Assembly (NCBI RefSeq): GCF_016065055.1
Contig: NZ_CP065856.1
Location: 1,115,836 to 1,179,835, forward strand
Direction of reading: 5' to 3'
Origin: Halosimplex litoreum
Lineage (GTDB): Archaea > Halobacteriota > Halobacteria > Halobacteriales > Haloarculaceae
DNA length: 64,000 nucleotides
Part shown: positions 24,370-42,516 of the stretch, in pieces
How the letters are laid out: the number at the start of each line of letters is the position of its first letter
How positions within the stretch are numbered: the stretch's first letter is position 1
Translations under genes and position numbers: made by a program
Notes under the pieces: generated by a model
Database searches by the model: none
What the model saw: the letters and a program-made list of their open reading frames with translations, nothing else
Told to the model about the DNA's origin: nothing

Positions 24370-25194
24370 CTATCCATCGTCTTCAGTTTCCAGGTCTGTA
24401 TTTTCGTGTTCTTCCCCGTGCGGATTTGGAGGTTTGCTAATATTTTCATCGTTGTCGTCGGCACCAGATTTGGTCTCCTCTCCACCACCTTCGGCCGAAT
24501 CCAGATAGGACTCTTCGATGTGTTTCTTCCGTTCTGAAGCCCAGTCAACAGCTTCTCCTACGTGCTCCTCACCATCCTTTTTATCCCAGACATGTTCTAC
24601 CGCGGCCTCTGCTGCAGCGTCAGTCCCGCCTTTTTTAACACCACTCGAGAGAGCGCGGACTGGATCGTCTTTGATCGATTCCGCCCCAGCTTTCACAATT
24701 CCAGAGATACCGCCGCTCTTTGCTCCGGATTTCAAGTGCTCTTCGGGACCAGATTCGTCTCCGACGTCATTCCGGTCGAGATCACCTAACTTTCCATAGA
24801 GCGCCTTATCTAATTCGTCGTTCGCAGAGAGGGTATCGATGAGTTCGTGTTTCCGCTCGCGGTCCAGTTCCATCCATTCTCCGCTGTCCATCTTTTCGAC
24901 ATCCCCAAGAGAGAAATTCTCAGCCTCATCGTCAATTTCTCCGATCCCTTCGGGCCCCTTCTCACCAGCTCTGGAAACATCCGCGTCATCTGCTTCACCA
25001 CTGCCCAACGCGTCCGAAACTGTATTGGAGACGACCTCCGGCGACTCCTTGACGAACTCGACGGCACCGCCGATGCTGGCGTACTCGCCGAGCGGTTTCT
25101 CCGTCCGTTCGTCGAGTTCGTGGGAGGCCTTCTCGTTCACCGGAGCGACCGAACCCCTCTCGATTCCGCCGAGGACCCCGCCAACCACTGTCAC
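24370..25194 (-). CDS. Orphan toxin-tail cassette, distal part
   Basis: A 274-aa acidic, mostly helical protein from a GTG overlapping the stop of 25191-25625 (GTGA). It begins MTVVGGVLGGIERGSVAPVN, continues with KASHELDERTEKPLGEYASI and GISGIVKAGAESIKDDPVRA, and ends in a very acidic tail. No catalytic motif is recognisable. Together with the preceding frame it looks like the C-terminal extension of a TrbL-type toxin that lost its membrane part. The two frames may be one gene split by a frameshift near 25200, or translationally coupled. Its natural partner at 23577 is broken. Confidence 0.5.
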   Translation of the reverse strand: MTVVGGVLGGIERGSVAPVNEKASHELDERTEKPLGEYASIGGAVEFVKESPEVVSNTVSDALGSGEADDADVSRAGEKGPEGIGEIDDEAENFSLGDVEKMDSGEWMELDRERKHELIDTLSANDELDKALYGKLGDLDRNDVGDESGPEEHLKSGAKSGGISGIVKAGAESIKDDPVRALSSGVKKGGTDAAAEAAVEHVWDKKDGEEHVGEAVDWASERKKHIEESYLDSAEGGGEETKSGADDNDENISKPPNPHGEEHENTDLETEDDG

Positions 25195-25625
25195 CTCGGG
25201 ATCGCCGCCGAAGCAACACCCCCTAACACGTCCCCCGAGATGACACCGCTCGCTGTCTTTTTCGCACCCTCCGAGACGTAGTCTTCGGCGTCGGGGCCGC
25301 CGTAGGCGTCGATGGACTCCGCGATGATCTCTTCGCCGCCCTCGTCCTTGACGAAGTCGACGACATCTTTGATCTCGTCCGTCTCCATCGCCTCCAGCGA
25401 GGACCGACCGTATCCTTCCACACGGTCCCAGGTCATCTCGTTCTTGCCGTACCCGCCTCCGATTTCTGGGTCCGCTTGGTCCACGTCGCTCCAGTCCATC
25501 TCGATATCGCGCAGGTCGATGCCGTCGGTCCCGCCGATGGACGAGGGAGATGGCTCGTCGGTCTCACCGCCTCCGGTCGAACCGAGTCCGACCGCCGCTC
25601 CCAGGCCCCCAGTTCCGTCTGGCAT
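25191..25625 (-). CDS. Orphan toxin-tail cassette, proximal part (linker side)
   Basis: A 144-aa frame. The Gly-rich beginning, and the open codons just before it (GLDRVGMPDGTGGLG), resemble the linker of the intact toxin at 27652 (LADRVGLSGGLVGG). This indicates a displaced copy of the region after the membrane domain. It continues as an acidic helical segment (EIKDVVDFVKDEGGEEIIAE) and stops at TGA 25191, overlapping the GTG of 24370-25194. No membrane segment or secretion domain remains in front of it, so it would need recombination with a TrbL-type gene to be delivered. Coding as an independent protein is uncertain. Confidence 0.45.
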   Translation of the reverse strand: MPDGTGGLGAAVGLGSTGGGETDEPSPSSIGGTDGIDLRDIEMDWSDVDQADPEIGGGYGKNEMTWDRVEGYGRSSLEAMETDEIKDVVDFVKDEGGEEIIAESIDAYGGPDAEDYVSEGAKKTASGVISGDVLGGVASAAIPR

Positions 25626-25879: not shown

Positions 25880-27643
25880 TTACTGCTTGACGCTCTCTTC
25901 CTGGAAGTCCCGGTGGAAATTGTCGACACGCTCGCTCGCTTCTGTGAACGCCAGCACGGCGACGTAGGGTTCGTCGACTGGTCGGACGACCATAATATCT
26001 TGTGCCGGGTCCTCAGACGTTCCAAGTTCCTCGAAAAGACCCTCCAGGCTCCGCTCCGCCCGGAGGAACTCGTAGAACACCTCGTCTTTGTCAGCAGTGG
26101 CTGGTGAGACTCTGACCTCTACTCGGTGAGGGTCGTCTTCGGGGTCCGCTTCGAGCGAGGTCCCAATGCCCCACTGGTCCGCGCCCGGGGCGTGTTCGAA
26201 CGCGCCGTGGACGATGTTGGGTACCCACGCTACGTTCGCGTAGAACGTCAGCGTCGTATCGGCTTTCAGCTTCGCGACTTCGATCTCCCAACAGTCCTCG
26301 GGTGCTGGCGGTTCCAGTGTCGCTTCGCTCGAACCGCCGCCCACCAGCGTCGCGAACACCAGATTTCCCGGGACGAACTGCTCGAACGATCGGAGTTGGT
26401 TGGACTCCACCGTATCCATCCGCACCCACAACCGAGCGTTAGCCTCGACGTCGACCCACAGCATCGCGTCGTAGTCGGGACAGACGCGGATGATTCGATA
26501 CGTGCCGGCCGCCGTTTCGGAGCCGTCAGTTGCTTCCGTCCCGGTGGCATCGGCGCCGGCTGTGGATCGTTCGTCGTCAGATCCGTCGGCTGGGGAGGTA
26601 CCGTTGGTATCGTCGTCCTGTTCGGCAGGCTGGCCGGACGCGGGTGGTCGCGGCTGGTCGTCGTCCTTGCGATAGCCGCGATACTGGCGGACGTACCTGG
26701 GTAGGACTGGGAGATCCCAGTCAGGCCACTCGCCTTCGACGAGTTGCGTCGCACGCTCTTTGAGGTCGTCGTCGAGGACGACTTCGGAAATGTCGATGGC
26801 TTCGACGTCGACGCTGGCGACCTCGCGGGCGATCTCATGAACCCGGTCGCGGCCAACTTCTGCGAGCATGTCCGCAGAGATGTACGGTTCTGGCTCGTCG
26901 GGCCCGAGGTTTTCGAGCGCTTCTTTCCCCCCCTCTTCGATGCGTTCGAACGTCTCTTGGTCGATTTCCAGTAAGACGTGGTCGACGGTGGCGTCTTTTT
27001 GCGCCTGCGAGAGGTCGAGGTCGTCCGGCACCCAGTCGTCGAGCGAATAGCCGTGTTCGGGGTCGTCGTCGGCCATCAGGGAGTGCCAGCGCTTGAATTC
27101 GCGCCCGCGCAATCGTCGGAAAATTTTTTCACCCTCGTACAGTGGCGCGTCCTCGTCGCGGATTGCGTCAAAGCGGCGAAGCAGGGCGTGACCAAATTCG
27201 GTAGGCTCACCGGTTCGACGGACGTGGGCGATGATCCCCTGAACACGAGCGTGTCCTAGATCGTTATAGATATTCGATATCAGATGTTCTGCCGTTTTCT
27301 TGCCTTTATGCACCCCTTCATCGGAAATCTGTCGGTATTTCTCTTCGCCTTTTGTGTTGTACTGCTCGTACCCGTATTCACCGACCAGCGAATATGCAAT
27401 TAAATACAAATCGATATCGTCATCTGAAATGTCTGCAATATCGTGTTGCCGAAGAAGGTTTGCCACGGCAGGGGCGACTCGGCGTTTGAAGTGACTCATT
27501 CGGCGTTGCTTTCGCTCGAATTCGTCGAGGTCACCGTCATCGGAGAGGCTATTTGCTATGGAACGAGCATGATGCGCGACGAGATCTTCATCTATGAACT
27601 CGGAAAAGTCCGTATGGACCAATCGATATGGATGATAATACAT
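25880..27643 (-). CDS. Partner (putative immunity/adaptor) of the ADP-ribosyltransferase toxin; C-terminal domain X
   Basis: A 587-aa acidic soluble protein starting 8 bp after the stop of the toxin gene, so the pair is surely co-transcribed. Residues 1 to about 340 form a unique, helix-rich region (HARSIANSLSDDGDLDEFER, LLRRFDAIRDEDAPLYEGEK) not shared with other partners here, as expected if it recognises this particular toxin. A low-complexity linker (about 340-378) leads to domain X (about 380-587; TYRIIRVCPDYDAMLWVDVE, PAPEDCWEIEVAK, VAVLAFTEASERVDNFH), also present in 21067 and 31260. Inference: the N-terminal part neutralises or chaperones the toxin and domain X docks it to the secretion machine. 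Confidence 0.72.
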   Translation of the reverse strand: MYYHPYRLVHTDFSEFIDEDLVAHHARSIANSLSDDGDLDEFERKQRRMSHFKRRVAPAVANLLRQHDIADISDDDIDLYLIAYSLVGEYGYEQYNTKGEEKYRQISDEGVHKGKKTAEHLISNIYNDLGHARVQGIIAHVRRTGEPTEFGHALLRRFDAIRDEDAPLYEGEKIFRRLRGREFKRWHSLMADDDPEHGYSLDDWVPDDLDLSQAQKDATVDHVLLEIDQETFERIEEGGKEALENLGPDEPEPYISADMLAEVGRDRVHEIAREVASVDVEAIDISEVVLDDDLKERATQLVEGEWPDWDLPVLPRYVRQYRGYRKDDDQPRPPASGQPAEQDDDTNGTSPADGSDDERSTAGADATGTEATDGSETAAGTYRIIRVCPDYDAMLWVDVEANARLWVRMDTVESNQLRSFEQFVPGNLVFATLVGGGSSEATLEPPAPEDCWEIEVAKLKADTTLTFYANVAWVPNIVHGAFEHAPGADQWGIGTSLEADPEDDPHRVEVRVSPATADKDEVFYEFLRAERSLEGLFEELGTSEDPAQDIMVVRPVDEPYVAVLAFTEASERVDNFHRDFQEESVKQ

Positions 27644-27651
27644 CGTTTTAA

Positions 27652-30159
27652 TTAAACATCTGCACCGAGTTTACGTAGGTCGGATTTGAGTTCCTCTTCC
27701 CATGCTTCTTTGGTTTCGCTGTCATCGATCCATCCCCTCTCACCTTCACCGGTTTGGTTTCTGCCCATCTCCTCTTTAGGTGAGTTTTTATACCAATCTT
27801 CGATACAATCTTTTGCTACATCATCAACTTCCACGCGATCGTGATCATCGGCAACTTTTTGAAGTGTTTTTGCCGTGTGTTGGTGTCCTTCGACTGTTAA
27901 TTGATCAGGATTTTTGAGTGCGTCTTTGAACGTGGATTGTCCGTCGCCATCTGTGAGCTTGACACCAGATTCGTCCTCCCTCCCGGAGATAGTCCCAATG
28001 GCTCCACCGGGAACTTGATACTCGTCATCACCCATTACGACACCTTCCTCGGGATCAAACCTGTCGTCGCACATCCCGTTTTTCTTGACGGTACGGATCG
28101 CATCCGAAATGACGATTTCGTCTTTGTCGACGGTTTTTTCCACAACCATTCCAGTCCCCCACTCGGTGGCGTATCCTTCCGCGGTAGATTTCGAGGCGGA
28201 CGTGTTACTGACTGCCTGATTGCGCGGGAGTTCGTAGCTCTCGGCATCGAAATCTTCGAGGACCTGCCGTGCCATGTCACCGGTGCGGTGAGTGAGTCCT
28301 CGCTGGAGATCCAGCGTGATCTCGCCGGTTTCCTCGTCGACGCTGGCGGCGTCTATTTTCTCGTGGTTCTCTTCGATAAACCTGTGACTCGCCTGCTGAT
28401 ACACGTCGAGGGCTTCTTCGGCTTCATCCGATAGCTCCATTCCCTTACCGAAGTCGTGCTCTTCATAGGGCGTATATCCCTCCATACCGCCCGATTGCAC
28501 TGGTATTGCCCCGCTTGGCTTTTCATCGATATCGTGGTGTTCTCGGACCATCTTTTCCCAGAGCTGTCCCCCGGGATGACTGCTCCCGTCGGATTTCCAG
28601 ACCTCGTGTGCTAACTGCATGTCCTTGGCCGTGAGTTCCCCGTCTATCTCGATGTACCCGTCGTCGTCCAGTGCGAGTCGTCGACCCTCGTCTGTATCCA
28701 CGGTCCTCAGAGCCATCTCGCTATCGTCTGGGTCGAGTGTGCGGATCTGTTGGTCCAGCTTCTTCCGTTCCGCTTCCGCAAGTGCCGGATACGTCGTTTC
28801 ACTCACCACCTCCTTTTGGGTATGTTCATTTGTGGGCAGCTCGACAGTGTCGCTGAATTCGATGTTGGTGAGTGCCTCGTGACGGCCACCCTCACCGACC
28901 ACCGAAGGATTGTCGAAACCATCACCGTTACCCCCGGAATCAATACCCATCGCGATGCTACCGCTATCGAGCACTGACGACCGTTCGTCGTCGCCGAATC
29001 GCCCGCCGACGAGCCCACCACTTAGCCCGACACGATCGGCGAGCGTTCCCGGCATCGATTGGCCGCTACTGGTCCCCCGGCTTGTCGCGTCTCCTCGTCT
29101 TTCCGCCCCACTGCCACCCCCGCCACCACCGTCACCGACCGAACTGAACAACTGCAGGACCGCCACCACCAGCACGCCGAAGACACCGAATCCGGACACC
29201 ATCAGGAACATCATCTCCGCGATCATTCCCTGAATCGACCCGCCGGGATCGGCAGCCAACGCCCCGCCGCGAACGACGCCCAACTCGCTCCCCGAACCGG
29301 GTTGGGTCTGGGACTGGTCGACGACTGCCCGGGCGGTGGCAGCCTCGCCGCCGACCGTCCCACCAGCCAGCAGTCCAAGCGAGGCGTTCAGCATCCCCGC
29401 GATGAGCACGCCCGCGACCAGCAACACGACCGCCAACTGGAAGGCGATCTCCGCGATCTGCCGGGCGTACTTGAGCGGGCCGATGTCGACGAGCCAGAAC
29501 GAGAGCAACAGCGGGAACAGCGCGTAGATCGACACCAGGACGAACTGCCGCAGCGCCAGCGCCAGCTGTCCCAGTAGCAGCGAGAGGAGAAGGAGTATCG
29601 AGACGAGGCCGCCGGTCAGCGCCGCCCGGAGGACCGACGAGAGCGACTCCGTCGGGGACCCCAGGTTCACCGTCACGTCGAGCGAGGCCAGGTCGGCCAG
29701 CAAGTAGTCCTGCAGGGCGTTGACCAGTTCGAACGCCCACGCGAACAGGCCCCTGGCGAACAGCGTCCCGTCGCCCGGCGGGTTCACGACGTAGATGAGG
29801 ACGATAGCGACGAACGTCCGCTCGGTGAACCGGTGCAGGTCCGTCGCGGACGACCGCGGGAACAGCTGGCCGAGCGCGAGCTGCGACAGCGCGAGCTGCG
29901 ACAGCGCCATCACGGCGAGCAACGCGAAGAACAGCCCGGTCGAAAGCTGATACACGCCCTCGACGGACGCGAGCATGTCCGGGTCGAGCGTGAGCGCCTC
30001 CCGTAGCACGGCCGCGTAGATGTCGAGGAGCACGTCGAGTCCCCGCCTGGCCGCGTCGAGATACACCGACGCGTACCACGTGAAGGCCTCCTTCACGTAG
30101 CCCGCGATATCGATATCGAGGAGACCGCCGAACTGGAGGAGGACCGAGGACGGGCTCAT
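27652..30159 (-). CDS. TrbL/VirB6-like membrane protein fused to a putative ADP-ribosyltransferase toxin domain
   Basis: An 835-aa protein; ATG 30159 is preceded by GGAGGGGGAG. Residues 1 to about 340 contain six or more membrane helices with ALFPLLLSFWLVDIGPLKYA (about 215-235), a motif shared with the TrbL-like proteins at 30230 and 40298, and VNPPGDGTLFARGLFAWAFE. A Gly/Ser linker follows. The soluble tail ends in a region ordered like R-S-E class ADP-ribosyltransferases: GLTHRTGDM (Arg near 622), SNTSASKSTAEGYAT (near 650), then VVEKTVDKDEIVI and MGDDEYQVPGG (near 711). Such enzymes modify host proteins with ADP-ribose from NAD. The catalytic assignment is by motif order only. It follows the secretion core genes and precedes its own partner gene. 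Confidence 0.75.
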   Translation of the reverse strand: MSPSSVLLQFGGLLDIDIAGYVKEAFTWYASVYLDAARRGLDVLLDIYAAVLREALTLDPDMLASVEGVYQLSTGLFFALLAVMALSQLALSQLALGQLFPRSSATDLHRFTERTFVAIVLIYVVNPPGDGTLFARGLFAWAFELVNALQDYLLADLASLDVTVNLGSPTESLSSVLRAALTGGLVSILLLLSLLLGQLALALRQFVLVSIYALFPLLLSFWLVDIGPLKYARQIAEIAFQLAVVLLVAGVLIAGMLNASLGLLAGGTVGGEAATARAVVDQSQTQPGSGSELGVVRGGALAADPGGSIQGMIAEMMFLMVSGFGVFGVLVVAVLQLFSSVGDGGGGGGSGAERRGDATSRGTSSGQSMPGTLADRVGLSGGLVGGRFGDDERSSVLDSGSIAMGIDSGGNGDGFDNPSVVGEGGRHEALTNIEFSDTVELPTNEHTQKEVVSETTYPALAEAERKKLDQQIRTLDPDDSEMALRTVDTDEGRRLALDDDGYIEIDGELTAKDMQLAHEVWKSDGSSHPGGQLWEKMVREHHDIDEKPSGAIPVQSGGMEGYTPYEEHDFGKGMELSDEAEEALDVYQQASHRFIEENHEKIDAASVDEETGEITLDLQRGLTHRTGDMARQVLEDFDAESYELPRNQAVSNTSASKSTAEGYATEWGTGMVVEKTVDKDEIVISDAIRTVKKNGMCDDRFDPEEGVVMGDDEYQVPGGAIGTISGREDESGVKLTDGDGQSTFKDALKNPDQLTVEGHQHTAKTLQKVADDHDRVEVDDVAKDCIEDWYKNSPKEEMGRNQTGEGERGWIDDSETKEAWEEELKSDLRKLGADV

Positions 30160-30229
30160 CTCTCCCCCTCCGCGACCGTCGACGGTCGGGCCGAGCGGTC
30201 GTGCCCGGCGAGCGTGGTCTCGCACATCG

Positions 30230-31270
30230 TCAGGTCGCCCCCCGCACGACCGCGAGGACGCTGACAGCCAGCGCCGTGCCGATCGTCCCGAGGAACGTCA
30301 CGAGGTCCGAGAGCGCGCTCCTGAACCGGTCCCCGTCGACGGTCGCGGGACCGCTCCCGTCGTCGAACGAGAGGTCCGCCCCGGACGCGTCGCCGGGCGT
30401 CCCCCCGTCGAGGTCTGCGATGACGACGCCGATGGAGAGGACCGCAGTGAGCACGATCCCGGCCAGGAGGAGATGGGCCGTGACGGAGAACAGTTGCTCG
30501 GCCAGCGCTTTCGCGTGTTCGGCCGGCCCGACGTCGACGACCCAGAGAGCCATCAACAGCGGGAAGACGGCGTACACCACGTAGACGAGGTACATCCGGA
30601 CGGCGAGGACGAACAGCAGCCCGAGGCCGAACAGCAGGAGCACCACGACGACGGGCGTGAGCGCGAGCGAGACGAACAGTGACCCGCTGTCGAAGAGTCG
30701 CGCGACTAGCTCGGCACCCAGGCGCATCCGGAAGGGATACCGATAGAACTCACCGGCGATCGCGTTCGTGAGCGCGACGGCGAAGCCGATCAGTTCCCGG
30801 GAGACGAGGACCGCGACGAATCCGAGGAGCACGCGGCGTAGCCAGCGCTGGACGCCCGCACCTTCGCTCTGCGGTCGCAGCTCGGCGGTCAGCAACTGGC
30901 CGAACGTCGCGACCAGAACGATCGCGAGATAGAGGCCGAGCGTCGTCCACCACGTCCCGTTCAGCGCCGCCACGTACGTCGGATTCCTGAAAAAGAGGAA
31001 CCACTCGAGGCCGACGCTAAAGACGGCGTCGAGCGATCCGAGGACGGCCCGGAGAACCTGTTCGAGGGACCACTCGATAGCGGACCGAAACGCTCCGAAG
31101 ATATCGATCCCCGGTATCTGGAGCGGCGCGACCCCGACGGGTATCGCGACGGCCGTGCGACCAGATCCGCGGGGAGCGGGCGGCTGTCGCGGGACCGCTG
31201 GAGCGTCGCCGAGACACCGACTGCGGGCGAGAGCCGCGCGGACGACGCGGCGTAGCCGGTCACGCCCCAC
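30230..31270 (-). CDS. TrbL/VirB6-like polytopic membrane protein of the secretion core
   Basis: A 346-aa frame from a GTG overlapping the end of 31260-31886. The first 45 residues are basic, and the true start may be a later codon near PVGVAPLQIPGIDIF. About seven membrane helices follow. VVYAVFPLLMALWVVDVGPA (about 240-259) matches the motif in the two toxin-bearing TrbL-like proteins, but this copy lacks the long soluble tail, ending SVLAVVRGAT. VirB6/TrbL proteins form the inner-membrane channel of type IV secretion systems. As the tail-less version inside the core operon, it is the likely structural channel subunit. Confidence 0.72.
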   Translation of the reverse strand: MGRDRLRRVVRAALARSRCLGDAPAVPRQPPAPRGSGRTAVAIPVGVAPLQIPGIDIFGAFRSAIEWSLEQVLRAVLGSLDAVFSVGLEWFLFFRNPTYVAALNGTWWTTLGLYLAIVLVATFGQLLTAELRPQSEGAGVQRWLRRVLLGFVAVLVSRELIGFAVALTNAIAGEFYRYPFRMRLGAELVARLFDSGSLFVSLALTPVVVVLLLFGLGLLFVLAVRMYLVYVVYAVFPLLMALWVVDVGPAEHAKALAEQLFSVTAHLLLAGIVLTAVLSIGVVIADLDGGTPGDASGADLSFDDGSGPATVDGDRFRSALSDLVTFLGTIGTALAVSVLAVVRGAT

Positions 31271-31886
31271 GTTCGCTCACCCCGGTACCGAGCGCGTCTC
31301 GCAGACGGGCCAGCGCGTGGCCTTCGGACGGAACGGCGTAGAGAGCGACGAACGGGCGCTCCATGACGTTCACGAATACGAGGTGGACGGGTGCTACCGC
31401 GACCGTGTCGGTCCCGTCGTACCAGCGTTCGAGCGACTGCGCTCCCGCTCGCAACGCTTCCCAGCGGTCGAGGCCCTCGACCCACTGTGGAATCGTCTGT
31501 AGCTCACAGACCGGATCGCCGGACGAGTCCCGCCGGAGACTGACACCGACCCCGGTGTTCGAATCCCGGGCGAGCCACGTGTCGACGACCGGCCCCGGCG
31601 GCGCGCCGTGGGTAACGAACGCGAGCGTCGTCTCTCGGACCGTCGACACGGACCGGAGCGCCCAGGGTTCACCGCCGTCGGCTGCCGGTTCGAGCGTCGC
31701 TTCGACTACCGCCCCGGGCGAGAGCGACCCCGTCAGCGGCACCTGTTCGTCGTCCCCCGGACAGGTCCACCGAGGGACACCGGCGTCCACGTCTCGGAGG
31801 AGCGCGGTCCGTTCCCCGTCGAATCCGAAGACCCGGAACTGGCCGTGACGAGCGTCGCCGTCTCCGTCGGTATCTCCGTCTCTCAT
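31260..31886 (-). CDS. Stand-alone domain X protein (secretion-core adaptor candidate)
   Basis: A 208-aa soluble protein consisting of one domain. QFRVFGFDGERTALLRDVDA, VVEATLEPAADGGEPWALRS, TTLAFVTHGAPPGPVVDTWL and RPFVALYAVPSEG align in order with the C-terminal domain X of the partner proteins at 21067 and 25880. It lies between the VirB4 ATPase gene and the TrbL-like gene and overlaps the latter by 11 bp, so it belongs to the machine rather than to one toxin. I know no named family for it. A natural guess is a scaffold or docking subunit that partner proteins mimic or compete with. Confidence 0.6.
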   Translation of the reverse strand: MRDGDTDGDGDARHGQFRVFGFDGERTALLRDVDAGVPRWTCPGDDEQVPLTGSLSPGAVVEATLEPAADGGEPWALRSVSTVRETTLAFVTHGAPPGPVVDTWLARDSNTGVGVSLRRDSSGDPVCELQTIPQWVEGLDRWEALRAGAQSLERWYDGTDTVAVAPVHLVFVNVMERPFVALYAVPSEGHALARLRDALGTGVSERGA

Positions 31887-31970: not shown

Positions 31971-34376
31971 TCAGTCCAGCTGGCCACGTTCGCTCCGCGG
32001 ACCTCGGGGAGGCGGTCCCGTCGACTCGTGCGCGGGGACGTCGTCGGGGTCGACGATCTCGTTGTCCACGAGGAACCGCCACGCGTCCAGGTCGCCGTCG
32101 ACGACGTGGTGTTCGAAGTCGTTCGACAGGACGCGCATCCGTAGCTTCCCGATGCCGGTGACGTAGAGCAGCGACTCGGAGTAGCTGGCGGAGTTCCCCG
32201 CCTGTGCCTGGAGCACGAAGTTGCGCTCCCGCTCGGTGAATCCGAGCGCCTCACACGCCTCCTCGCTGAGGTCCTGGTGGCGCATCAGCGCGCGGATGTC
32301 GCACTGGTCGTAGATCTCCTTGGCCTTCTCGCTGTGCATGAACTCGTCGACGGTCTGACTGATGAGCGTCAGCCCGCTCCCGTAGTGGCGGCTGTGACGG
32401 ACGAAGAGGTTCAGCATATCCAGCGACTGGTCGTGGCCGAGCATGTAGTGCGCTTCGTCGATGACGACGATCATGTTGCCGTCGTTGTTCTTCGCACGCT
32501 GGAAGAGCCAGTCCAGAACGATGTGCATCAACAGCCCTTCGTTCCGTCCGTCCGCGACGTTCGACAGGTCGAACTGAACGACGCGTTCGTTGAGCCTGAC
32601 GTTCGTCTCACCGTTGAGGTTGGCCCGCTGTCCGCCCTGCTGGAAGTCTTCGAGCCCCAGCAAGACGCTCTGGGCGTACTCTGCGATCCGCTTTTGACTC
32701 TCCGCTGACCGGCGTTGATCCCGGGACGCCGAGAGCGAAGCCAGAACTGACTCGCTTTCGGGTGGAGGGTCGATGAACTCCTCCGGTGAGAGCCCGTCGG
32801 CCAGGTTCCGGAGCACGTCCAGGACGTCGTCGAGGGTCGGGCTCTCGTTACCGTGCGTCTCCGGGTCCTTCGTGATCCCGTACCGAAGGTACGCCAGCCG
32901 GATCGCACGGCGGAGGACCCCCTCCTCTTCTTTGTTGAGTTCGCGCCTGCCCTCGAAATGCGACTCGAACATCCCCATGACGCTGCGGATCTTCTCGTCG
33001 TAGGGGTTGCTGTCGGTCGCCTCTAGATTGTCGGCCGCCTTGATCTCCAGCGGATTGATGATAGTGCTACTGTTGATCGTCACTTTCTGGCCGTCGACCG
33101 CGTCGACGATATCGCCGAACCCTCCCACGGGGTCGATGATGAGCACTTCGGCGTCGGGGTCGATCATCAGCCGTCGCCACATCGCCAGCTTCGCGAGGTA
33201 GGACTTCCCCGACCCGATCTTGCCGGTGATGAGCATGTTGTGGCCCGACCGCTGGAAGCGGTCGACGACGACAGGGCTGTTCGTCGCCGAGTGGAAGCCG
33301 AGCAACACGCCCGACGGTTCGACGACGGTCGGGTCGGTGAACGGGAACGCCGTCGCCAGCGCCCGCTGGTCCATCACCTGTGTTTTCCGTATGGGGTCGT
33401 CGGCTAGCGGTGCGATGGCTCGCTGTGACTGGCGCTGTCTGTCGAACAGCGTCGCCAACCTCGCGTTCGACTGGGCGAGGTGTTGTTTGAGTTCCTGGGT
33501 CCCCTCGTCGAGGGCGTCTTCGTCTTGCGCGACGACCTCGAAGTACAGGCCGAAGTCGAAGAGTTTCGCCGACCCCGCGGTCAGCTCGTCCCGGAGGCGA
33601 TTGATGTGTTCGAGTTTCTTCTCCTCTTCGAGTGTGTTGACCTTCCCTTTCTCCCGTTTCTCCTGGAGTTTCGTCGACAGCCGTGTGGCACGGACGTTGA
33701 GTTTCTGTTTCATCGTCTGGCTGTCCCGGGGCCAGATCTGCTGGGACACCCGCACCTCGGCGCCTTTCGTCGAGAGTCCGGTGGTAAAGAGCGTATCGAG
33801 CCACCCGTTCGCGACTCGACTCGGATAGTCCGAGATGATCAGCACGCGCGCAAGTTTCTCGTTCCTGTTCCCCCCGAGACGCTTGATGTAACTTTTCGAT
33901 TCGACGATCCGGTTCGGGGCGACGCTGAGACGTGTCGATTCGCTCCTGTCGTCGGCGTCCGGAACTGCCCCGGTGGTCGCCCGTTGGTCCATCGACCGCT
34001 CGTATTCGATCTCCTCGAGTTCGTCCCGGAGCGCCTCCCCCGAGACGTCTTCGCCCCTCCGTTGTAGCCGTCGCACGGCCTCGCTTACGAACTCGTTTTC
34101 GGCGTCTCGAACCCCTTCGGCCGTGCCGTCAGACGCCGACGCCCGAGTGCCCGACACCCCCTCCGATCGGCCGACGGTATCCGCGATCCGTCGTCGGATC
34201 GCTCCGGGGGACGCGTTCAGAAAGATCGGTGTCGAACCGAGTATCATAAAGACGGACACGAGCAGCACCAGCGACGGGAGCGCGCCGTAGGTCTCGACGA
34301 ACTCCCCCATTCCGAACAGGTCGTAAATGCCTCTGACGAACGACGCCTGAAGCGGCCACGCGACCGCCTCACTCAT
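31971..34376 (-). CDS. VirB4-type secretion ATPase (C-terminal ATPase half of a split VirB4)
   Basis: An 801-aa protein with one N-terminal membrane helix (about residues 33-53: LPSLVLLVSVFMILGSTPIF). The HerA/FtsK-type ATPase core has Walker A ITGKIGSGKSYLAK (about 383-396), Walker B MIVVIDEAHYML (about 632-643) and SRHYGSGLTLISQTVDEF (about 655-675), the sensor/arginine-finger region typical of VirB4/TraC. A charged helical stretch (about 220-290) precedes the core. It overlaps the VirB4 N-terminal-domain gene by 8 bp. VirB4 powers pilus assembly and substrate translocation. No VirD4-type coupling ATPase is encoded in the island. Confidence 0.85.
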   Translation of the reverse strand: MSEAVAWPLQASFVRGIYDLFGMGEFVETYGALPSLVLLVSVFMILGSTPIFLNASPGAIRRRIADTVGRSEGVSGTRASASDGTAEGVRDAENEFVSEAVRRLQRRGEDVSGEALRDELEEIEYERSMDQRATTGAVPDADDRSESTRLSVAPNRIVESKSYIKRLGGNRNEKLARVLIISDYPSRVANGWLDTLFTTGLSTKGAEVRVSQQIWPRDSQTMKQKLNVRATRLSTKLQEKREKGKVNTLEEEKKLEHINRLRDELTAGSAKLFDFGLYFEVVAQDEDALDEGTQELKQHLAQSNARLATLFDRQRQSQRAIAPLADDPIRKTQVMDQRALATAFPFTDPTVVEPSGVLLGFHSATNSPVVVDRFQRSGHNMLITGKIGSGKSYLAKLAMWRRLMIDPDAEVLIIDPVGGFGDIVDAVDGQKVTINSSTIINPLEIKAADNLEATDSNPYDEKIRSVMGMFESHFEGRRELNKEEEGVLRRAIRLAYLRYGITKDPETHGNESPTLDDVLDVLRNLADGLSPEEFIDPPPESESVLASLSASRDQRRSAESQKRIAEYAQSVLLGLEDFQQGGQRANLNGETNVRLNERVVQFDLSNVADGRNEGLLMHIVLDWLFQRAKNNDGNMIVVIDEAHYMLGHDQSLDMLNLFVRHSRHYGSGLTLISQTVDEFMHSEKAKEIYDQCDIRALMRHQDLSEEACEALGFTERERNFVLQAQAGNSASYSESLLYVTGIGKLRMRVLSNDFEHHVVDGDLDAWRFLVDNEIVDPDDVPAHESTGPPPRGPRSERGQLD

Positions 34377-35547
34377 TCGCGACCCCTCCGGTCGACGCCG
34401 ACGGATCGTAGTAGCTGCGCGACGACCGTCTGTCGAAGCCGGGGCGAACCGGTTGCTGGTTGTTGTAGTAGTGATAGAGGACGCTCAGGACCTCGTCTCG
34501 GTCCCGGAGCCGTTCGGCCTGGATGTCCAGTCGCTGAAGCGAACCCTGAATTCGACCGAGTCGCGCGTTCAGTTCGCGAACACATTGCGTTCGAGTTACG
34601 TCCGCCCCGTCGTCGCCACCGAGGAACTCCATCACCGACGCCAACGGCGGGAATCGGTCGGCCAGGTCCGTCAGAACCCCTCCCGAATCTGCCTGTAATT
34701 CCTGTATCATGTCTACCGAGACGGGTGCGACGACGTAGAACCGCCGCTGTTTCATGTCGTTTTTCGTGATGAACTCGTCGAGCCAGCGAGGGTAGATGCT
34801 CCGACCGACGTCTATCAACTCGCTGGCGGCGCGCGCGTCCTCTTTTCGCTCGCGGATCTCGTCCAGCCGCTGGACGTGGTCGGAAATGTCGAACCGAGTC
34901 GGATACGAGACGATCTGGATCGGGAAATCGAGCGCCCCCAGAAACGCCGACTGGTACGTCTCCGCGATCTGGCTCTTCTTCTCGGCCGTGTGGATCGACC
35001 AGCTCCTGGGCTCGACTCGGAGTATCGCGACGTACTTCTGTTCGTCGACGACCACCATCCCAGCGCCGTCGACGCCTTCGGGGACCCAGTCGTCGTCCGC
35101 TTCCAGGACGAATTCGAAGTTCAGCATGTCCTGCGTATAGTTCGGAACTTCGAACACGCCCCGTTCGGTCGGGTCCGTGGCCTGTGCCGGCGGCCGAGTG
35201 TCCCGATGCGCATCCGGGTCCCCTTTCGGCGACTCGGGACTCCCGTCGTCTGCGGACCCGACGCTCTCGTCGGACCGCGCGTCGTCTCCCCCGACGGTGT
35301 CCTCCGCGTCGGCGTCACCCCCGAACGACGGCGTCACACCGACGAAGGCGCCGTCGGTCTCGTTCCCCGCTTGCCCCCTCGTCTGGCCGTCCTCGTCCGA
35401 TTCCCCTCGGTCCTCGTCCTGCTGTGTGCTATCTCTTCGGTCCGGCATAGTTCGATCCCGTTGCAGGTCCCGCTCGGTGTTCCGCTCCGTGCTACGTTCG
35501 GTCGTCGTCCGCTTCGGAGGCGACCAGCGTTTCCGCGTACGCGACAT
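34369..35547 (-). CDS. VirB4/TraC N-terminal domain protein (separate polypeptide)
   Basis: A 392-aa protein. The first 140 residues are a low-complexity charged region; an internal ATG at 35448 is a plausible alternative start. The folded part (about 145-390) has VVVDEQKYVAILRVEPRSWS, IAETYQSAFLGALDFPIQIV and a long helical segment ending in RDEVLSVLYHYYNNQQPVRP. This corresponds to the N-terminal domain found in front of the ATPase in VirB4/TraC/TrbE of conjugation systems. In most bacterial systems it is fused to the ATPase; here it is a separate upstream gene overlapping the ATPase gene by 8 bp. Confidence 0.65.
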   Translation of the reverse strand: MSRTRKRWSPPKRTTTERSTERNTERDLQRDRTMPDRRDSTQQDEDRGESDEDGQTRGQAGNETDGAFVGVTPSFGGDADAEDTVGGDDARSDESVGSADDGSPESPKGDPDAHRDTRPPAQATDPTERGVFEVPNYTQDMLNFEFVLEADDDWVPEGVDGAGMVVVDEQKYVAILRVEPRSWSIHTAEKKSQIAETYQSAFLGALDFPIQIVSYPTRFDISDHVQRLDEIRERKEDARAASELIDVGRSIYPRWLDEFITKNDMKQRRFYVVAPVSVDMIQELQADSGGVLTDLADRFPPLASVMEFLGGDDGADVTRTQCVRELNARLGRIQGSLQRLDIQAERLRDRDEVLSVLYHYYNNQQPVRPGFDRRSSRSYYDPSASTGGVANE

Positions 35548-35911
35548 CGTCGCCGGGGGACTCCTGTCGGATCTGCTCGTGCGTGTGGATCCGGTCTCGA
35601 TACGTGACTGGGCCCCTGTTTCGCTCCGCCGGCTTGAGATAGTACACCGACGGCATCAATCGCCGCCGAGCGGCCGCCGGAGCCCATTCGACCGGCGTTT
35701 GCCCTTCCGGCGTTCGGACCGCGACGACGACGACACCGACAGCGGCCACCCCGATCAGCAACAGCGACCACACGAACGATATCTCCTCGATGTAGAGCGT
35801 CGGCAACACCAGCACCATCGGTACCGACCCCAACACGACGAGTTCGTCGAACGTCAGCCCCAGCATCACGGTCGTCCTGAGGATTTTCCCCGGCACCCTC
35901 GCGGTTTTCAT
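35492..35911 (-). CDS. PrgI-like small membrane protein of the secretion core
   Basis: A 139-aa protein starting MKTARVPGKILRTTVMLGLT. The segment GLTFDELVVLGSVPMVLVLP plus a second helix (VWSLLLIGVAAVGVVVVAVR), followed by PEGQTPVEWAPAAARRR, is the layout of PrgI/VirB3-like proteins that sit directly upstream of VirB4 in Gram-positive-type type IV systems. A TATA-like ATATATATC centred near 35932 lies about 24 bp before ATG 35911, which favours this start over an ATG at 35992. It is the first gene of the core operon and overlaps the next gene by up to 56 bp. Confidence 0.65.
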   Translation of the reverse strand: MKTARVPGKILRTTVMLGLTFDELVVLGSVPMVLVLPTLYIEEISFVWSLLLIGVAAVGVVVVAVRTPEGQTPVEWAPAAARRRLMPSVYYLKPAERNRGPVTYRDRIHTHEQIRQESPGDDVAYAETLVASEADDDRT

Positions 35912-35927
35912 CGTCTCTACCACATCG

Positions 35928-35936
35928 ATATATATT
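35928..35936 (-). promoter_or_regulatory. TATA element of the secretion core operon
   Basis: GAATATATATC on the minus strand within an AT-rich stretch (35925-35955) in otherwise GC-rich DNA. Spacing to ATG 35911 fits a near-leaderless mRNA covering the genes from 35911 to 27652 or further. Confidence 0.5.
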
Positions 35937-35988
35937 CTCTCTAATATTTCTTTGGATGTCGAACGGACGAACTCTCTCGAAGTGCATT

Positions 35989-36296
35989 TCACGGCGACTT
36001 ACGAGCTCGCTGTCGTTCGTGCGAGCGGCCGACGGGAGGACAGCCGCGCCTTCCGAAAGAACGGCGTTTCACGAACGTACGGGGCGAACGGCCACGCTTT
36101 TCCCCGCAGAGTCTCCGACGTAGCCCGCGTCGATTCGGCCGAACTGCGGTCGGGTGCGGTCCCGCTGTCGGCCGGTGAATCGGTACCCGGCCGAACTGAC
36201 CGCGGCGGTGGTCGGATCGGCGCTCTCGTCCCCCGCTGCCGGCCACGGCTTTCGCGGCGCCGCCGACCGCACCGTCAGAGCCCACCATCGGTCGAG
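35989..36296. other. Spacer containing a fragment of a glycine-zipper tail
   Basis: Upstream of the core promoter and downstream of 36297-37058. On the minus strand SDGAVGGAAKAVAGSGG is encoded at about 36235-36285, resembling SGAVGGAAKGLAGSG of the orphan tail at 37116. This is a short remnant of another tail cassette. The rest shows nothing recognisable. Confidence 0.45.
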
Positions 36297-37058
36297 TCAA
36301 AAGTCGTCGTCGTAGTACTCTTTATCTTCGGTTGTCAACAACTTCCCCGGCAGCTCCTCGTCGATGTCGGCGTAGGGTTCGGGCGGTTCTTCACCGACGT
36401 GACGGTAGATATCACGGATCTTCGCCATCATGTGCTCGACGAGGAACACCTGAAAGCCGTCGGGAAACTCGTAGTCACCCTCCCGGAACTCCATGGGCGG
36501 CAACGTGATCGTGAATTTCTTCGCTGGATATCCCGGTGACGTGTCGTACTTCGACATCCGCGAGTCTCGGTGGGTCGTCTGGACCTCACCGTCTTTCCGA
36601 TACTGGATGATCGGCGTCGGCACGAACTCGATGTCGTTGTCCTCGTCGACGATGTATGGCTGAGTGATGATCTGCGCAGTCTCTTCGGTCACGTCCTCGA
36701 ATCGTTCCGGCGCAGTCACCATCTCGTAGCACGTCTCGAACTGCTCGGCAAAGTCGTCGACGTGCATGGTTTGCAGCGCTTCGATCCCGCGTTCGACCTC
36801 TTCGGGAATCCACTCCGGATTCACGATCTCCGCCTCGGGGAACTCCCGCTGGGCAGCCAGTTTCGCCCGCGCTTCGACCTGCGTCATGATCCGTTGTTGT
36901 TCGAACGTCCGCCCCTCGCGATATTTCGGGTAATCATCCGCGTAATGTTTTTTAATTTCACCGTCCCACCCGACGTGTACTACGTGACCAATCTGTCTTC
37001 CATCAAATATTTCCACACCAACTTCTGTATCGTTCTGGCCGAGAATTTCTACTTCCAT
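36297..37058 (-). CDS. Y-type partner (putative immunity) protein
   Basis: A 253-aa acidic soluble protein. MEVEILGQNDTEVGVEIFDG begins the small beta domain; FEQQRIMTQVEARAKLAAQR and RDIYRHVGEEPPEPYADIDE are the family's hallmark segments. It differs strongly from its paralogues in the middle (about residues 110-170), the part that would be expected to vary if it recognises a specific tail. The start has GGACC nine bases upstream and matches the paralogues. It follows the orphan tail 37116-37775 by 57 bp and is probably co-transcribed with it. Confidence 0.7.
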   Translation of the reverse strand: MEVEILGQNDTEVGVEIFDGRQIGHVVHVGWDGEIKKHYADDYPKYREGRTFEQQRIMTQVEARAKLAAQREFPEAEIVNPEWIPEEVERGIEALQTMHVDDFAEQFETCYEMVTAPERFEDVTEETAQIITQPYIVDEDNDIEFVPTPIIQYRKDGEVQTTHRDSRMSKYDTSPGYPAKKFTITLPPMEFREGDYEFPDGFQVFLVEHMMAKIRDIYRHVGEEPPEPYADIDEELPGKLLTTEDKEYYDDDF

Positions 37059-37115
37059 AATAGGTCCTTTCTGCTTAGTTTTCGCGCTATCACTCGTTTC
37101 ATTCTGTACCACGGG

Positions 37116-37775
37116 TTAGTCGTCGTTTCTTTGTTTGAATTCACTATCATCCATAGTCCCATCACGAGTGTCCGCCCCACCACTCTCACCGAGACTGAAG
37201 TCGAGGTCGTACCACTCTTCGCGCATTTCGCTGGTGAACGAGTCGACGGTGGCTCGCCCGGCTTCGCCCAGACTCCCGGTCTCCCGGAGTTTTCGCGTGA
37301 AACTCGCCGCGCCACTCCCCGCCAGCCCTTTCGCGGCGCCGCCGACCGCCCCGCTGACCGCGCCGACGCCCGCACCGACCACAGTCCCGACCGGGCCGGC
37401 GACCGTCCCGGCCGCACCGCCCGACACCGCGCCGGTGATCGCGCCTTTGACCGCGTCGCCGGCTGCCGACTCCAGGTGCTTGTTTTCGGTATTCCCGCCG
37501 GCCTGCTCGTAAATCTGCTGGAGGTCGTCCACCTGCTCGTCCGACCACTCGTCGGACAGCGCGTCCTCGAAGTCGTCGGCGGAGTCGGCCTCCGACAGCG
37601 AGATGTCCTGCTGGTCCGGCGTCGGCTGACTCGACGGTGTCGACACTTTGTCGTCGGTCGCTGGCGTCGCGTCGCCGCTGGGCCCGCTGGACGACTCCGA
37701 TTCGCCGCCCGACCCACCGGCCGTGCAAGCGGTCGATTTCACCCTCCCACCGAAGCGCGACGCGACTACCGACAT
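37116..37775 (-). CDS. Orphan toxin-tail cassette with a glycine-zipper segment
   Basis: A 219-aa protein without membrane-channel or secretion part. It starts MSVVASRFGG, matching an internal methionine (MSMAASLSGVGG) just after the last membrane helix of the TrbL-type protein at 40298. A Ser/Thr/Gly linker follows, then a helical acidic segment (DDLQQIYEQAGGNTENKHLE). A 45-residue small-residue stretch comes next (about 105-155: GAITGAVSGGAAGTVAGPVG and continuation) with GxxxG spacing that could insert into membranes. The C-terminus is acidic. Inference: a displaced alternative tail, possibly membrane-acting. The partner gene is 36297-37058. Confidence 0.6.
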   Translation of the reverse strand: MSVVASRFGGRVKSTACTAGGSGGESESSSGPSGDATPATDDKVSTPSSQPTPDQQDISLSEADSADDFEDALSDEWSDEQVDDLQQIYEQAGGNTENKHLESAAGDAVKGAITGAVSGGAAGTVAGPVGTVVGAGVGAVSGAVGGAAKGLAGSGAASFTRKLRETGSLGEAGRATVDSFTSEMREEWYDLDFSLGESGGADTRDGTMDDSEFKQRNDD

Positions 37776-37824
37776 TGCTCACCGCGTCCCGTCGTCCAGC
37801 CACCAGGAATCGCTCGTTCGGGTG

Positions 37825-38565
37825 TCATCCTGTCGTCGATTGGCGCTCCATCCAGCCCTCGTCGCCGACAATATGCAACTTCCCGATACCCTCGACACGG
37901 TACTCCTCGGGCGGGTCCTCACCCATGTTGAGGTAGATATCCCGGATTTGAGCCATGACGTGCGAGACGACGACGTCTTCCATCTGATCTTCGTAGACGA
38001 AGTCCTCAGCCAACTCCACTTTGGGGAGATGGAGCACTAGCGTTTCCTCTGTGGGCCAGGACGGATACGACCCCACGACACGATCCTGGCCGGTCTCGAG
38101 CTGGTACTCGACGACGAGATCCGCGACATCAACCAGTTGGTCGTCGCTGAACCGGAGTGGCTTGTTGACGACCGCCGTCGGCTCGTCCATCTCCGGATCC
38201 TGAACGTACTCTTTGGGGTCCTGGATCGCTTCGTAGAACTCCCTGAACTCCTCGTGGAACGCTTCGACGTCGTAGGAGGCCAGCGAGCGTAATCCCGCTT
38301 CGACGTGGGCCGGATCCCACATCGGATGGAGGATCTCTGCGTCCGGGAACTCCTGTTGCGCCGCGTACTTAGCTCGTTCTTCGACCTGGGTCATGATCCG
38401 CTGCTCGTCCGGTGTGCGATTCTCGGGCTGAAGAGGATAATTCTCGGTAGAGTGCTTATGAATTGTCCCACCCCAATTAATTGATATAGAGTGGCGGTTG
38501 TTGTTCTCGTCGAAGACTTCAACGCCACAGCCTTGATCATCTTGGCCGAGAATATTGGCTTCCAT
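37825..38565 (-). CDS. Y-type partner (putative immunity) protein
   Basis: A 246-aa acidic soluble protein, very similar to 39549-40295 from about residue 55 to the end (TPDEQRIMTQVEERAKYAAQ, LVLHLPKVELAEDFVYEDQM, RDIYLNMGEDPPEEYRVEGI are common to both). They diverge in the first 50 residues (MEANILGQDDQGCGVEVFDE here). It starts two bases after the orphan tail gene 38568-39499. Its stop codon overlaps an ATG in ATGA form, opening a 20-codon frame that runs into the next tail gene. The pair of near-identical partners matches the pair of near-identical tails. Confidence 0.7.
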   Translation of the reverse strand: MEANILGQDDQGCGVEVFDENNNRHSISINWGGTIHKHSTENYPLQPENRTPDEQRIMTQVEERAKYAAQQEFPDAEILHPMWDPAHVEAGLRSLASYDVEAFHEEFREFYEAIQDPKEYVQDPEMDEPTAVVNKPLRFSDDQLVDVADLVVEYQLETGQDRVVGSYPSWPTEETLVLHLPKVELAEDFVYEDQMEDVVVSHVMAQIRDIYLNMGEDPPEEYRVEGIGKLHIVGDEGWMERQSTTG

Positions 38566-38567
38566 TG

Positions 38568-39499
38568 TTAATCGAACCTCGTTCCGTCGTCAACAGCATC
38601 TCCTGAGTCGGTGGCGGTCTGGTAGGACTCCCGCCCCAGCGTCTCGACCTTCTCGAGTCCGGTCTGTGTGAGGTCAGCGCCAGCTTTGAGCGTGTCCGCG
38701 GCCCCTTCGCGGACGCTTCCCTGCTGAATCGCCCGCTTGCCAGTATAGGCGACGGTCCCCGCCATGCCAACGGTGGCGAGGGCACCTGCGACCGGCAACG
38801 AACCCAGACCCGCCGCCGCTACGGCCGCCCCGCCGACTGCGCCGCCCGCCGGACCCATCATCTCCGAGAGTAGTTTCCGACCGCTACTCTTGTCGATGCT
38901 CCGGTCGGCCACGTTCGCGTCCCACATCGCCTCCATCATCGTCTCGTTCGCGTCGTCGTAGCCGTGGTTGTTCATGAAGTCTTCCTTGTCTTCGGCCGCC
39001 TCGAAGGGGTTGACGTCCTCGGACGCGTAGCGCTGGCGGCTCTGATCAGGGTCCGGGTCGCGGCCACCAGCGAACGCCGCAGTGTCGGGCTGGCTCCCGT
39101 CTTCGTACTGCGAGATCGCCGTTTGATCCGGCTCCGACGCTCGCTCCCCGCGCCGCTGAAGCCGGCGACCGGCCCGCTCGTCCCCGGCGTGTCCCGTCCG
39201 TACTCGTCGATGCCGGGATTATCGAGCCGGTCACCACTGGTGGTGTCGGGCAACTCCCGCGAGTCCGTACCGGACTGGCTCCGTGTCGCCTCGCCGGCCG
39301 AGCCGGATCTGGAACTGGCCGTCCCACCGGCCGGCTCGGGACTCCCGGCCGCTGTCCCCGAGTTCGACCCGCTGGACTTGCCACCGCTCCCGCTCCCGCG
39401 ACCGACCACCTGCTTGCCCTTGCCGACCGCACCGCCGATGCCGCTCTTGATCGCGCCGCCCACGCCGCCGACGCCCGACATCGACGCCGCCACTGTCAT
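38568..39499 (-). pseudogene. Orphan copy of the 40298 toxin tail, frameshifted
   Basis: It starts MTVAASMSGVGGVGGAIKSG, the equivalent of the region just after the last membrane helix of 40298-42229. It runs through a Gly/Ser linker in one frame to about 39165 (GTSGPVAGFS), where the frame shifts; the homologous sequence continues in the other frame (RGERASEPDQTAISQYEDGS). The last 135 codons (from ATG 38975, MNNHGYDDANETMMEAMWDA) are nearly identical to the 40298 tail, including GGAVGGAAVAAAGLGSLPVA. They could still be translated alone from that ATG. DNA identity to 40386-40865 is very high at an offset of 1745 bp, indicating recent duplication. Confidence 0.7.
38641..39120. repeat. Duplicated toxin-tail DNA, copy 1
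   Basis: About 480 bp nearly identical to 40386-40865 at a constant offset of 1745 bp, with only scattered substitutions. It encodes the C-terminal tail of the orphan cassette. The flanking partner genes are also duplicated but more diverged. Confidence 0.85.
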
Positions 39500-39548: not shown

Positions 39549-40295
39549 TCATCCAGATGTCGTCGGTTGGGCCTCCATCCACCCCTCGTCGCCGACGATG
39601 TGCAATTTCCCGATCCCTTCGACGCGATACTCCTCGGGCGGATCCTCGCCCATGTTGAGGTAGATGTCCCTGATCTGTGCCATGACGTGCGAGACGACGA
39701 CGTCTTCCATCTGGTCTTCGTAGACAAAGTCCTCGGCCAACTCGACTTTCGGCAGGTGGAGCACCAGCGTTTCTTCGTCCGGCCAGGATGGATACGAGCC
39801 GGCGACCCGGTCTTGTCCGTTCTCCCGCTGGTACTCGACGACGAGATCTGCAACGTCCACGACTCGGTCCTCGCTGAACCGTATCGTCTTGTTGACTACC
39901 GCCGTCGCCTCGTCCATCTCCGGATCCTGGACGTACTCTTTGGGGGCCTGAATCGCTTTGTAAAACTCCCTGAACTCCTCGTGGAACGCTTCGACATCGT
40001 AGGAGGACAGCGAGCGTAATCCCGCTTCGACGTGATCGGGGTCCCACATCGGGTAGAGGATATCCGCGTCTGGGAACTCCTGCTGGGCCGCGTATTTAGC
40101 CCGTTCTTCGACCTGAGTCATGATCCGCTGCTCGTCCGGTGTGCGGTCCGCTGGATTATGTGAGTATGCTTCTTGTTGATGTTCTCTAACACCGCCATCC
40201 CAGTTTAGCGCAAGCCAGTGACGGTTTGTTCGCTCATCAAAGACATTAATGCCGATTCCTTGCTCTCCATCTGCACCCGTGATTTCTGTTTCCAT
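39549..40295 (-). CDS. Y-type partner (putative immunity) of the glycine-zipper toxin
   Basis: A 248-aa acidic soluble protein starting two bases after the stop of the toxin gene 40298-42229. METEITGADGEQGIGINVFD starts the variable N-terminal portion; from about residue 50 it matches 37825-38565 almost throughout, ending in RDIYLNMGEDPPEEYRVEGI. Since the toxin tail here and the orphan tail at 38568 are also near-identical, both partners probably recognise the same tail. The stop overlaps an ATG that opens an 18-codon frame (39552-39496) ending on the start of the next tail gene. Confidence 0.72.
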   Translation of the reverse strand: METEITGADGEQGIGINVFDERTNRHWLALNWDGGVREHQQEAYSHNPADRTPDEQRIMTQVEERAKYAAQQEFPDADILYPMWDPDHVEAGLRSLSSYDVEAFHEEFREFYKAIQAPKEYVQDPEMDEATAVVNKTIRFSEDRVVDVADLVVEYQRENGQDRVAGSYPSWPDEETLVLHLPKVELAEDFVYEDQMEDVVVSHVMAQIRDIYLNMGEDPPEEYRVEGIGKLHIVGDEGWMEAQPTTSG

Positions 40296-40297
40296 CG

Positions 40298-42229: not shown

Positions 42230-42516
42230 CCGTCGACACACCCCGTTTCTCCCCGGAGCCCCGAGTCGACGATGGAGTCGCTCCCGGGACTGTGCGTGGC
42301 GTTCACTCGACACTCGTCTCGGACGGTCGCCCCGGGACTGCGGCGTAGACCGGCGGACGACTGCCTCCGTGGGGCACGGGTTCCCCGTTCGCCCGAGCGA
42401 ACGGGGACTCCGCCGACCACCTCGGCCCGACCGGGACACCGCCGCTGGCGCCCATCTCTCCATGGGCCCGCGTCGAGCGGTCGACGGCGTCTGGTAGGGT
42501 CCGTGCTGGTCATCTG
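42230..42516. other. Spacer with a strong hairpin between surface protein and toxin genes
   Basis: This 287-bp gap on an otherwise tightly packed strand contains the inverted repeat TCCCCGTTCG-CCCGAG-CGAACGGGGA at 42382-42407 (10-bp perfect stem), without a T-tract. It could separate transcription of the surface module from the toxin module. No start-proximal TATA element is obvious. Confidence 0.5.

What the first reader, a model, noticed from the sequence alone, without database searches (positions are those of the whole stretch)
31971..35911. VirB4 split into two polypeptides with no coupling ATPase or relaxase nearby
The VirB4 N-terminal domain (34369-35547) and the ATPase (31971-34376) are separate overlapping genes, preceded by a PrgI-like gene. 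No TraG/VirD4 ATPase, relaxase or integrase is recognisable in the island, so DNA transfer is unlikely to be its main task.
Basis: partly seen in the sequence, partly recalled or inferred. Interest (0 to 1): 0.6.

Follow-up and report, generated by a model that had tools for sequence, protein, structure and literature searches.

The report
Haloarchaeal secretion machine carrying swappable toxins
A salt-loving archaeon carries a conjugation-like secretion machine that has lost its DNA-loading motor and whose membrane-channel proteins end in swappable toxin-like tails paired with protector genes, so it probably attacks neighbouring cells rather than moving DNA.

Summary
VirB4 is encoded by two overlapping genes behind a PrgI-like gene, and the split is conserved, not an error: it recurs in every near homologue and most distant ones, and a fused homologue (G218, 1028 aa) carries PrgI, VirB4-N and VirB4-C in that order. 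But split VirB4 is common in haloarchaea, including loci with a giant TrwB/DUF87-type coupling ATPase, so the split itself does not argue against DNA transfer. What sets this island apart is that the coupling ATPase is missing and the VirB6-like membrane proteins carry variable C-terminal tails, mostly Gly-zipper hydrophobic segments. Each tail is followed by a ~245-aa partner gene, and displaced tail-partner cassettes lie nearby. Partner and tail types covary (Mantel r 0.69; 0 of 5000 permutations). The same partner family follows eCIS_core (DUF4157) effectors in other haloarchaea (29 of 42) and lies inside contractile-injection clusters; in another haloarchaeon DUF4157-partner pairs were shown to be toxin-immunity pairs. 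Best explanation: a VirD4-less T4SS-like machine delivering polymorphic toxins. Delivery, toxicity and immunity here are inferred. One key earlier survey of archaeal polymorphic toxins was not readable, so novelty is tentative.

The parts
45805..46302 (-). small membrane protein (2 TM), possible first gene of the operon
   Evidence: ORF and TM scan; no Pfam match
44931..45860 (-). Lon-like S16 protease-like membrane protein, conserved machine component
   Evidence: weak ChlI/Lon_C; PADLOC CARF-Lon 1.5e-6 over the Lon part; homologues in 6 effector loci and in Salinibaculum, where it is annotated S16 protease
44403..44798 (-). T4SS pilin (VirB2-like)
   Evidence: PF18895 4.1e-8; conserved
42517..44406 (-). 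629-aa surface protein with N- and C-terminal TM, conserved T4SS-associated component
40298..42463 (-). VirB6-like polytopic protein with C-terminal Gly-zipper tail (candidate effector 1)
   Evidence: 6-7 TM; family alignment A5; tail
39549..40295 (-). partner (putative immunity) of effector 1
   Evidence: partner family A4
38568..39499 (-). displaced tail cassette, near-copy of the effector 1 tail, frame-shifted in its linker (ORFs 38972-39499 and 38568-38975)
   Evidence: DNA repeat 39482-40876 vs 37758-39131, 84.5% over 1401 bp; ORFs
37825..38565 (-). partner of the displaced cassette; AF2 model pLDDT 90
37116..37775 (-). displaced Gly-zipper tail cassette of a second type
   Evidence: Gly-zipper and RTX-N matches, sub-threshold
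36297..37112 (-). partner of the second tail type
35492..35992 (-). PrgI-like (VirB3-type) membrane protein
   Evidence: PF12666 0.0036; PrgI-like segment heads a fused VirB4
34369..35547 (-). VirB4 N-terminal half
31971..34376 (-). VirB4 C-terminal half: TM, rest of the N-terminal region, HerA/TraG-type ATPase
31260..31886 (-). 208-aa soluble protein related to the C-terminal domain of 21067-22653
   Evidence: BLASTP 4.6e-6
30230..31270 (-). VirB6-like protein without tail
   Evidence: 7 TM; virB6a profile
27652..30225 (-). VirB6-like protein with a ~430-aa soluble C-terminal domain unlike the other tails (candidate effector 2)
25880..27643 (-). putative immunity protein of effector 2 (different N-terminal half)
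   Evidence: C-terminal half 41% identical to 21067-22653
24370..25625 (-). possible displaced tail cassette (two overlapping ORFs 25191-25625 and 24370-25194)
   Evidence: ORFs; position; function inferred
23583..24313 (-). decayed partner gene (broken frame)
   Evidence: 68.6% DNA identity to 22753-23483; 1 TAG inside
22747..23484 (-). partner family member
21067..22653 (-). partner-family domain fused to a second domain shared with 25880-27643 and 31260-31886
20521..21048 (-). remnant of an effector-2-like gene at the island end, beside tRNA-Ser
   Evidence: DNA repeats 29126-29400 vs 20690-20943 and 28147-28239 vs 20935-21027; tail remnant

Best explanation
The island encodes a VirB4-powered, T4SS-like membrane machine (pilin, S16-like protein, large surface protein, PrgI, two-piece VirB4, VirB6-like platform proteins) without a VirD4-type coupling ATPase. 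It has been turned into a polymorphic-toxin delivery system. VirB6-like proteins act as both channel subunit or delivery leader and carrier of a C-terminal warhead: usually a Gly-zipper hydrophobic domain that would insert into and permeabilise the target membrane, and in 27652-30225 a soluble, possibly enzymatic domain. The ~245-aa soluble gene after each tail protects producer and kin. Displaced tail-partner cassettes can be recombined behind the VirB6 leader, changing specificity. Shown by sequence: machine genes, VirB4 halves, missing coupling ATPase, tail-partner pairing and covariation, cassette duplication, and sharing of the partner family with DUF4157 effectors. Inferred: toxicity, immunity, export by this machine, pore formation, target identity.
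For: Same gene set (PrgI-VirB4N-VirB4C, pilin, VirB6-like with tail, partner) in 8 loci across several genera; none carries a coupling ATPase of its own, whereas most related VirB4 loci have a cpA-family ATPase or a cpB-type one. Partner family in 47 of 292 genomes. Outside VirB4 loci it directly follows eCIS_core/DUF4157 proteins (29 of 42) and lies within +-10 kb of the sheath gene in 13 of 22 haloarchaeal CIS loci, e.g. inside the Haloferax larsenii CIS cluster. In Halogeometricum borinquense several DUF4157 proteins are toxic in Hfx. volcanii and the downstream gene relieves it (PMC11566945). None of the nine genomes with VirB6-tail/partner loci has an eCIS_core protein, so there the partners cannot serve a CIS. 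Tail type and partner type covary, Mantel r 0.69, 0 of 5000, also when shuffled only within loci. Tandem arrays of partner genes with no toxin between them fit immunity. Cassette duplication and decay in the window.
Against: No experiment on this locus. VirB6 identity rests on TM pattern and position, no profile match. The partner fold has no confident match among solved structures (inconclusive). Tail similarity between VirB6-type and eCIS-type proteins is weak (best 30 bits, shuffled best 22). The AF2 model of effector 2's tail failed (pLDDT 33). Whether the immunity genes tested in H. borinquense belong to this partner family could not be checked.
Confidence: 0.68

Rival explanations
1. A DNA transfer or DNA import machine (conjugative or Ced-like), with the toxin-partner genes as cargo or addiction modules.
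For: Closest VirB4 relatives sit in loci with TrwB/DUF87-type coupling ATPases; Salinibaculum sp. KK48 (58% VirB4-C) even nests inside the effector clade. Ced-type systems use a VirB4/HerA ATPase.
Against: No coupling ATPase, relaxase or integrase in the island; no PF03432 relaxase or PF02534 in the genome. Tails are fused to the VirB6-like machine proteins themselves, not just neighbours.
Confidence: 0.15
2. The partner family consists of chaperones or adaptors that shield the hydrophobic tails and load them on the machine (as Eag proteins do in T6SS), rather than immunity proteins.
For: One homologous soluble family serves many different tails and two delivery machines; hydrophobic tails would need shielding; one partner-family gene has an extra domain shared with a protein encoded between VirB4 and VirB6.
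Against: Partner-only tandem arrays without toxins (e.g. L104); strong tail-partner type covariation; downstream genes of DUF4157 toxins relieve toxicity in H. borinquense (PMC11566945). Both roles may coexist.
Confidence: 0.2
3. Decaying remnants of a conjugative element with accumulated hypothetical genes and no current function.
For: Broken partner copy and frame-shifted cassette; remnant at the island end.
Against: All machine genes are intact and the gene set is conserved in at least 7 other genomes; only displaced cassettes are broken, as expected of polymorphic toxin loci.
Confidence: 0.07

Closest known systems
Haloarchaeal contractile injection system effectors (DUF4157/eCIS_core) with downstream immunity genes, e.g. 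Halogeometricum borinquense (PMC11566945) and the Haloferax larsenii CIS cluster
   Same: Same downstream partner family (shown for Hfx. larsenii and others, not checked for H. borinquense); C-terminus often hydrophobic and Gly-rich; gene-pair layout
   Different: Leader is a VirB6-like membrane protein, machine is VirB4/pilin/PrgI; no eCIS_core proteins in these genomes
Haloarchaeal conjugation-like VirB4 loci with giant DUF87/TrwB-type coupling ATPase (Haloterrigena turkmenica, Natronosalvus, Halorientalis, Salinibaculum sp. KK48 plasmids)
   Same: VirB4 in two pieces, PrgI, pilin, surface protein, VirB6-like genes in similar order
   Different: Those carry a coupling ATPase of 1300-1700 aa and no tail-partner cassettes
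Bacterial polymorphic toxin systems (PMC3482391)
   Same: Variable C-terminal module, downstream immunity gene, displaced cassettes
   Different: That survey names no VirB6/TrbL leader in the text held; the partner family matches no Pfam family
VirD4-independent T4SS protein exporters such as Bordetella Ptl and Brucella VirB (from memory)
   Same: VirB4-type machine exporting protein without VirD4
   Different: Substrates there are separate proteins, not fused to VirB6

Membership tests
Type IV secretion system (VirB4 type) | VirB4 ATPase | tested here: met
Type IV secretion system (VirB4 type) | VirB2-like pilin, VirB3/PrgI, VirB6-like polytopic protein | tested here: inconclusive
   pilin PF18895 4e-8 met; PrgI sub-threshold but a PrgI-like segment is fused to VirB4 in a relative; VirB6 by topology and position only
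Conjugative element | VirD4/TraG coupling ATPase | tested here: not met
Conjugative element | relaxase | tested here: not met
   no match among island proteins or for PF03432 in the genome; unknown archaeal relaxases would be missed
Ced/Ted DNA import | CedA-type membrane proteins and CedB-type ATPase, by phylogeny | not tested
   no Ced sequences were compared
Polymorphic toxin system | conserved N-terminal delivery part with variable C-terminal modules | tested here: met
Polymorphic toxin system | cognate gene directly downstream, covarying with the module | tested here: met
Polymorphic toxin system | displaced tail-partner cassettes | tested here: met
Polymorphic toxin system | toxicity and immunity | not testable with these tools
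   needs expression assays; analogous DUF4157 pairs tested in PMC11566945
Haloarchaeal CIS effector | eCIS_core (DUF4157) leader | tested here: not met
   none in G000 or the other eight genomes with VirB6-tail loci

The most novel reading that the evidence does not exclude
A toxin-delivery T4SS in archaea in which the VirB6-like channel subunit is itself the exchangeable warhead carrier, working without any coupling ATPase, and sharing a toxin-immunity repertoire with contractile injection systems: one arsenal, two interchangeable delivery machines.
Probability: 0.4. Interest if true: 0.85.

Novelty: new variant of a known kind. Interest (0 to 1): 0.7.

Why it matters
Contact-dependent killing in archaea has, in the literature read here, been shown for the contractile (T6SS-like) machine. 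This would add a second, conjugation-derived delivery route in haloarchaea, show that a cargo-partner family moves between unrelated machines, and give a way to recognise VirD4-less VirB4 loci as weapons rather than transfer systems. It is directly testable in cultivable haloarchaea.

Tried and rejected
Split as a sequencing or assembly error: rejected, conserved. Split as a sign of non-DNA function: rejected, also in loci with coupling ATPases. Solved-structure relatives of VirB4-N, VirB6 and partner families by profile: none convincing. Partner fold by Foldseek/VIA: no confident match, inconclusive. Effector 2 tail as an ADP-ribosyltransferase: an RG, a Ser/Thr-rich SASKST and a DDEYQ motif, and a weak relative (L200, Pfam DRAT E 0.17), suggested it, but the AF2 model failed (pLDDT 33) and no significant family matched; left as a lead only. 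tRNA-Ser as integration site: no direct repeat of the tRNA end found and the island is on its 5' side. Genome-contig scan with VirB4: nothing. H. borinquense plasmid records were not in the collection, so membership of its tested immunity genes in the partner family could not be checked. The 2019 mBio survey of archaeal polymorphic toxins was not held.

Full report
Check of the observation. Both ORFs and the PrgI-like gene are where stated. The 801-aa product is a VirB4-type ATPase. The 392-aa product has no Pfam match, but a profile of its family (alignment A3) matches residues 108-312 of a fused 1028-aa haloarchaeal homologue, preceded by a PrgI-like segment (26-98, weak) and followed by the VirB4-C match at 372-1018; three other fused homologues give weaker matches in the same order. 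So it is a true VirB4 N-terminal segment. The break lies inside the N-terminal region: about 350 residues, with a TM segment, precede the ATPase domain in the second polypeptide.

The split is not special. PrgI / VirB4-N / VirB4-C as separate genes is found in all near homologues (57-63% identity) and in the 41% and 33-38% groups. Most of these distant loci have, close by, a giant ATPase with TrwB_AAD_bind, DUF87 or TraG-D_C matches. The split alone therefore says nothing about function.

What is special. In eight loci (this window, G076, G084, G102, G115, G140, G145, G088) no such ATPase belongs to the module; G102 has a separate module with its own fused VirB4 and TraG on the other strand, and G084 a short stand-alone TraG-like fragment about 16 kb away. 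Two of these contigs are short or end near the locus (G115, G145). Instead, the VirB6-like proteins carry C-terminal tails, and each tail is followed by a gene of one ~245-aa family. Most tails hold a ~50-residue Gly/Ala-rich hydrophobic segment. In the window the tail plus partner of 40298-42463 is duplicated at 84.5% DNA identity as a displaced, frame-shifted cassette; another partner copy is decayed, and remnants of an effector lie at the island end.

Partner family. It occurs in 47 of 292 haloarchaeal genomes. Away from VirB4 loci its members follow proteins with an eCIS_core domain, 29 of 42 such proteins in the loci examined, and lie within +-10 kb of the sheath gene in 13 of 22 CIS loci; in Haloferax larsenii one sits inside the CIS cluster right after a DUF4157 gene. 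In Halogeometricum borinquense DUF4157 proteins were toxic in Haloferax volcanii and the downstream gene relieved toxicity (PMC11566945). Whether those tested genes belong to this family could not be checked. None of the nine genomes with VirB6-tail/partner loci has an eCIS_core protein. Tail and partner similarities covary (32 pairs, Mantel r 0.69; 0 of 5000 shuffles, also within loci); shared descent of pairs contributes to this, so it shows linked evolution, not binding. Direct tail similarity between the two leader types is only suggestive.

Evolution. In the VirB4-C tree the eight effector loci and Salinibaculum sp. KK48 form a clade (100/100); Salinibaculum, with a coupling ATPase and no partner genes, nests inside, so the switch happened twice or was reversed once. 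The island is 54-69% G+C between flanks of mostly 68-75%, flanked by ordinary chromosomal genes.

Mechanism. Most likely the two-piece VirB4 drives assembly or export through a pilin/PrgI/VirB6 complex, the VirB6-borne tails reach and damage a neighbouring cell, and the partner protects kin. Sequence shows the parts and their pairing; export, toxicity and immunity are inferred. A chaperone role of the partner and a residual DNA role are not excluded.

Novelty. The delivery leader (VirB6-like) and the absence of the coupling ATPase differ from the haloarchaeal systems found in the readable literature (PMC11566945, PMC3482391, PMC4158269). The 2019 survey of archaeal polymorphic toxins was not available, so the claim is a new variant, tentatively.

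Noticed in passing
L002 / L068-L069 (own genome C1:2484611-2486386): Second, 33% identical VirB4 in the same genome with its own membrane-protein neighbours; no coupling ATPase profile matched nearby.
   Followed up: partly
window 27652-28941: Effector 2 tail has no clear relatives in about 390 haloarchaeal genomes except a weak one (L200); ADP-ribosyltransferase-like motifs by eye only.
   Followed up: partly
window 31260-31886, 21067-22653, 25880-27643: A shared ~200-residue domain links a gene between VirB4 and VirB6 with two putative immunity proteins; it may be an adaptor.
   Followed up: partly
L104, L105, L119: Tandem arrays of 4-7 partner-family genes with no toxin between them in G104, G064 and G105 (family f3); in L104 the array starts after an eCIS_core gene.
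   Followed up: no
L130:19158-24317 and L048, L050, L051: Giant (1300-1700 aa) DUF87/TrwB-like coupling ATPase family of haloarchaeal plasmids, one with a bacterial PH domain match.
   Followed up: partly
L114, L046 (G002): Several tail-partner cassette arrays with only a truncated VirB4 left: probably a decayed version of the system.
   Followed up: no
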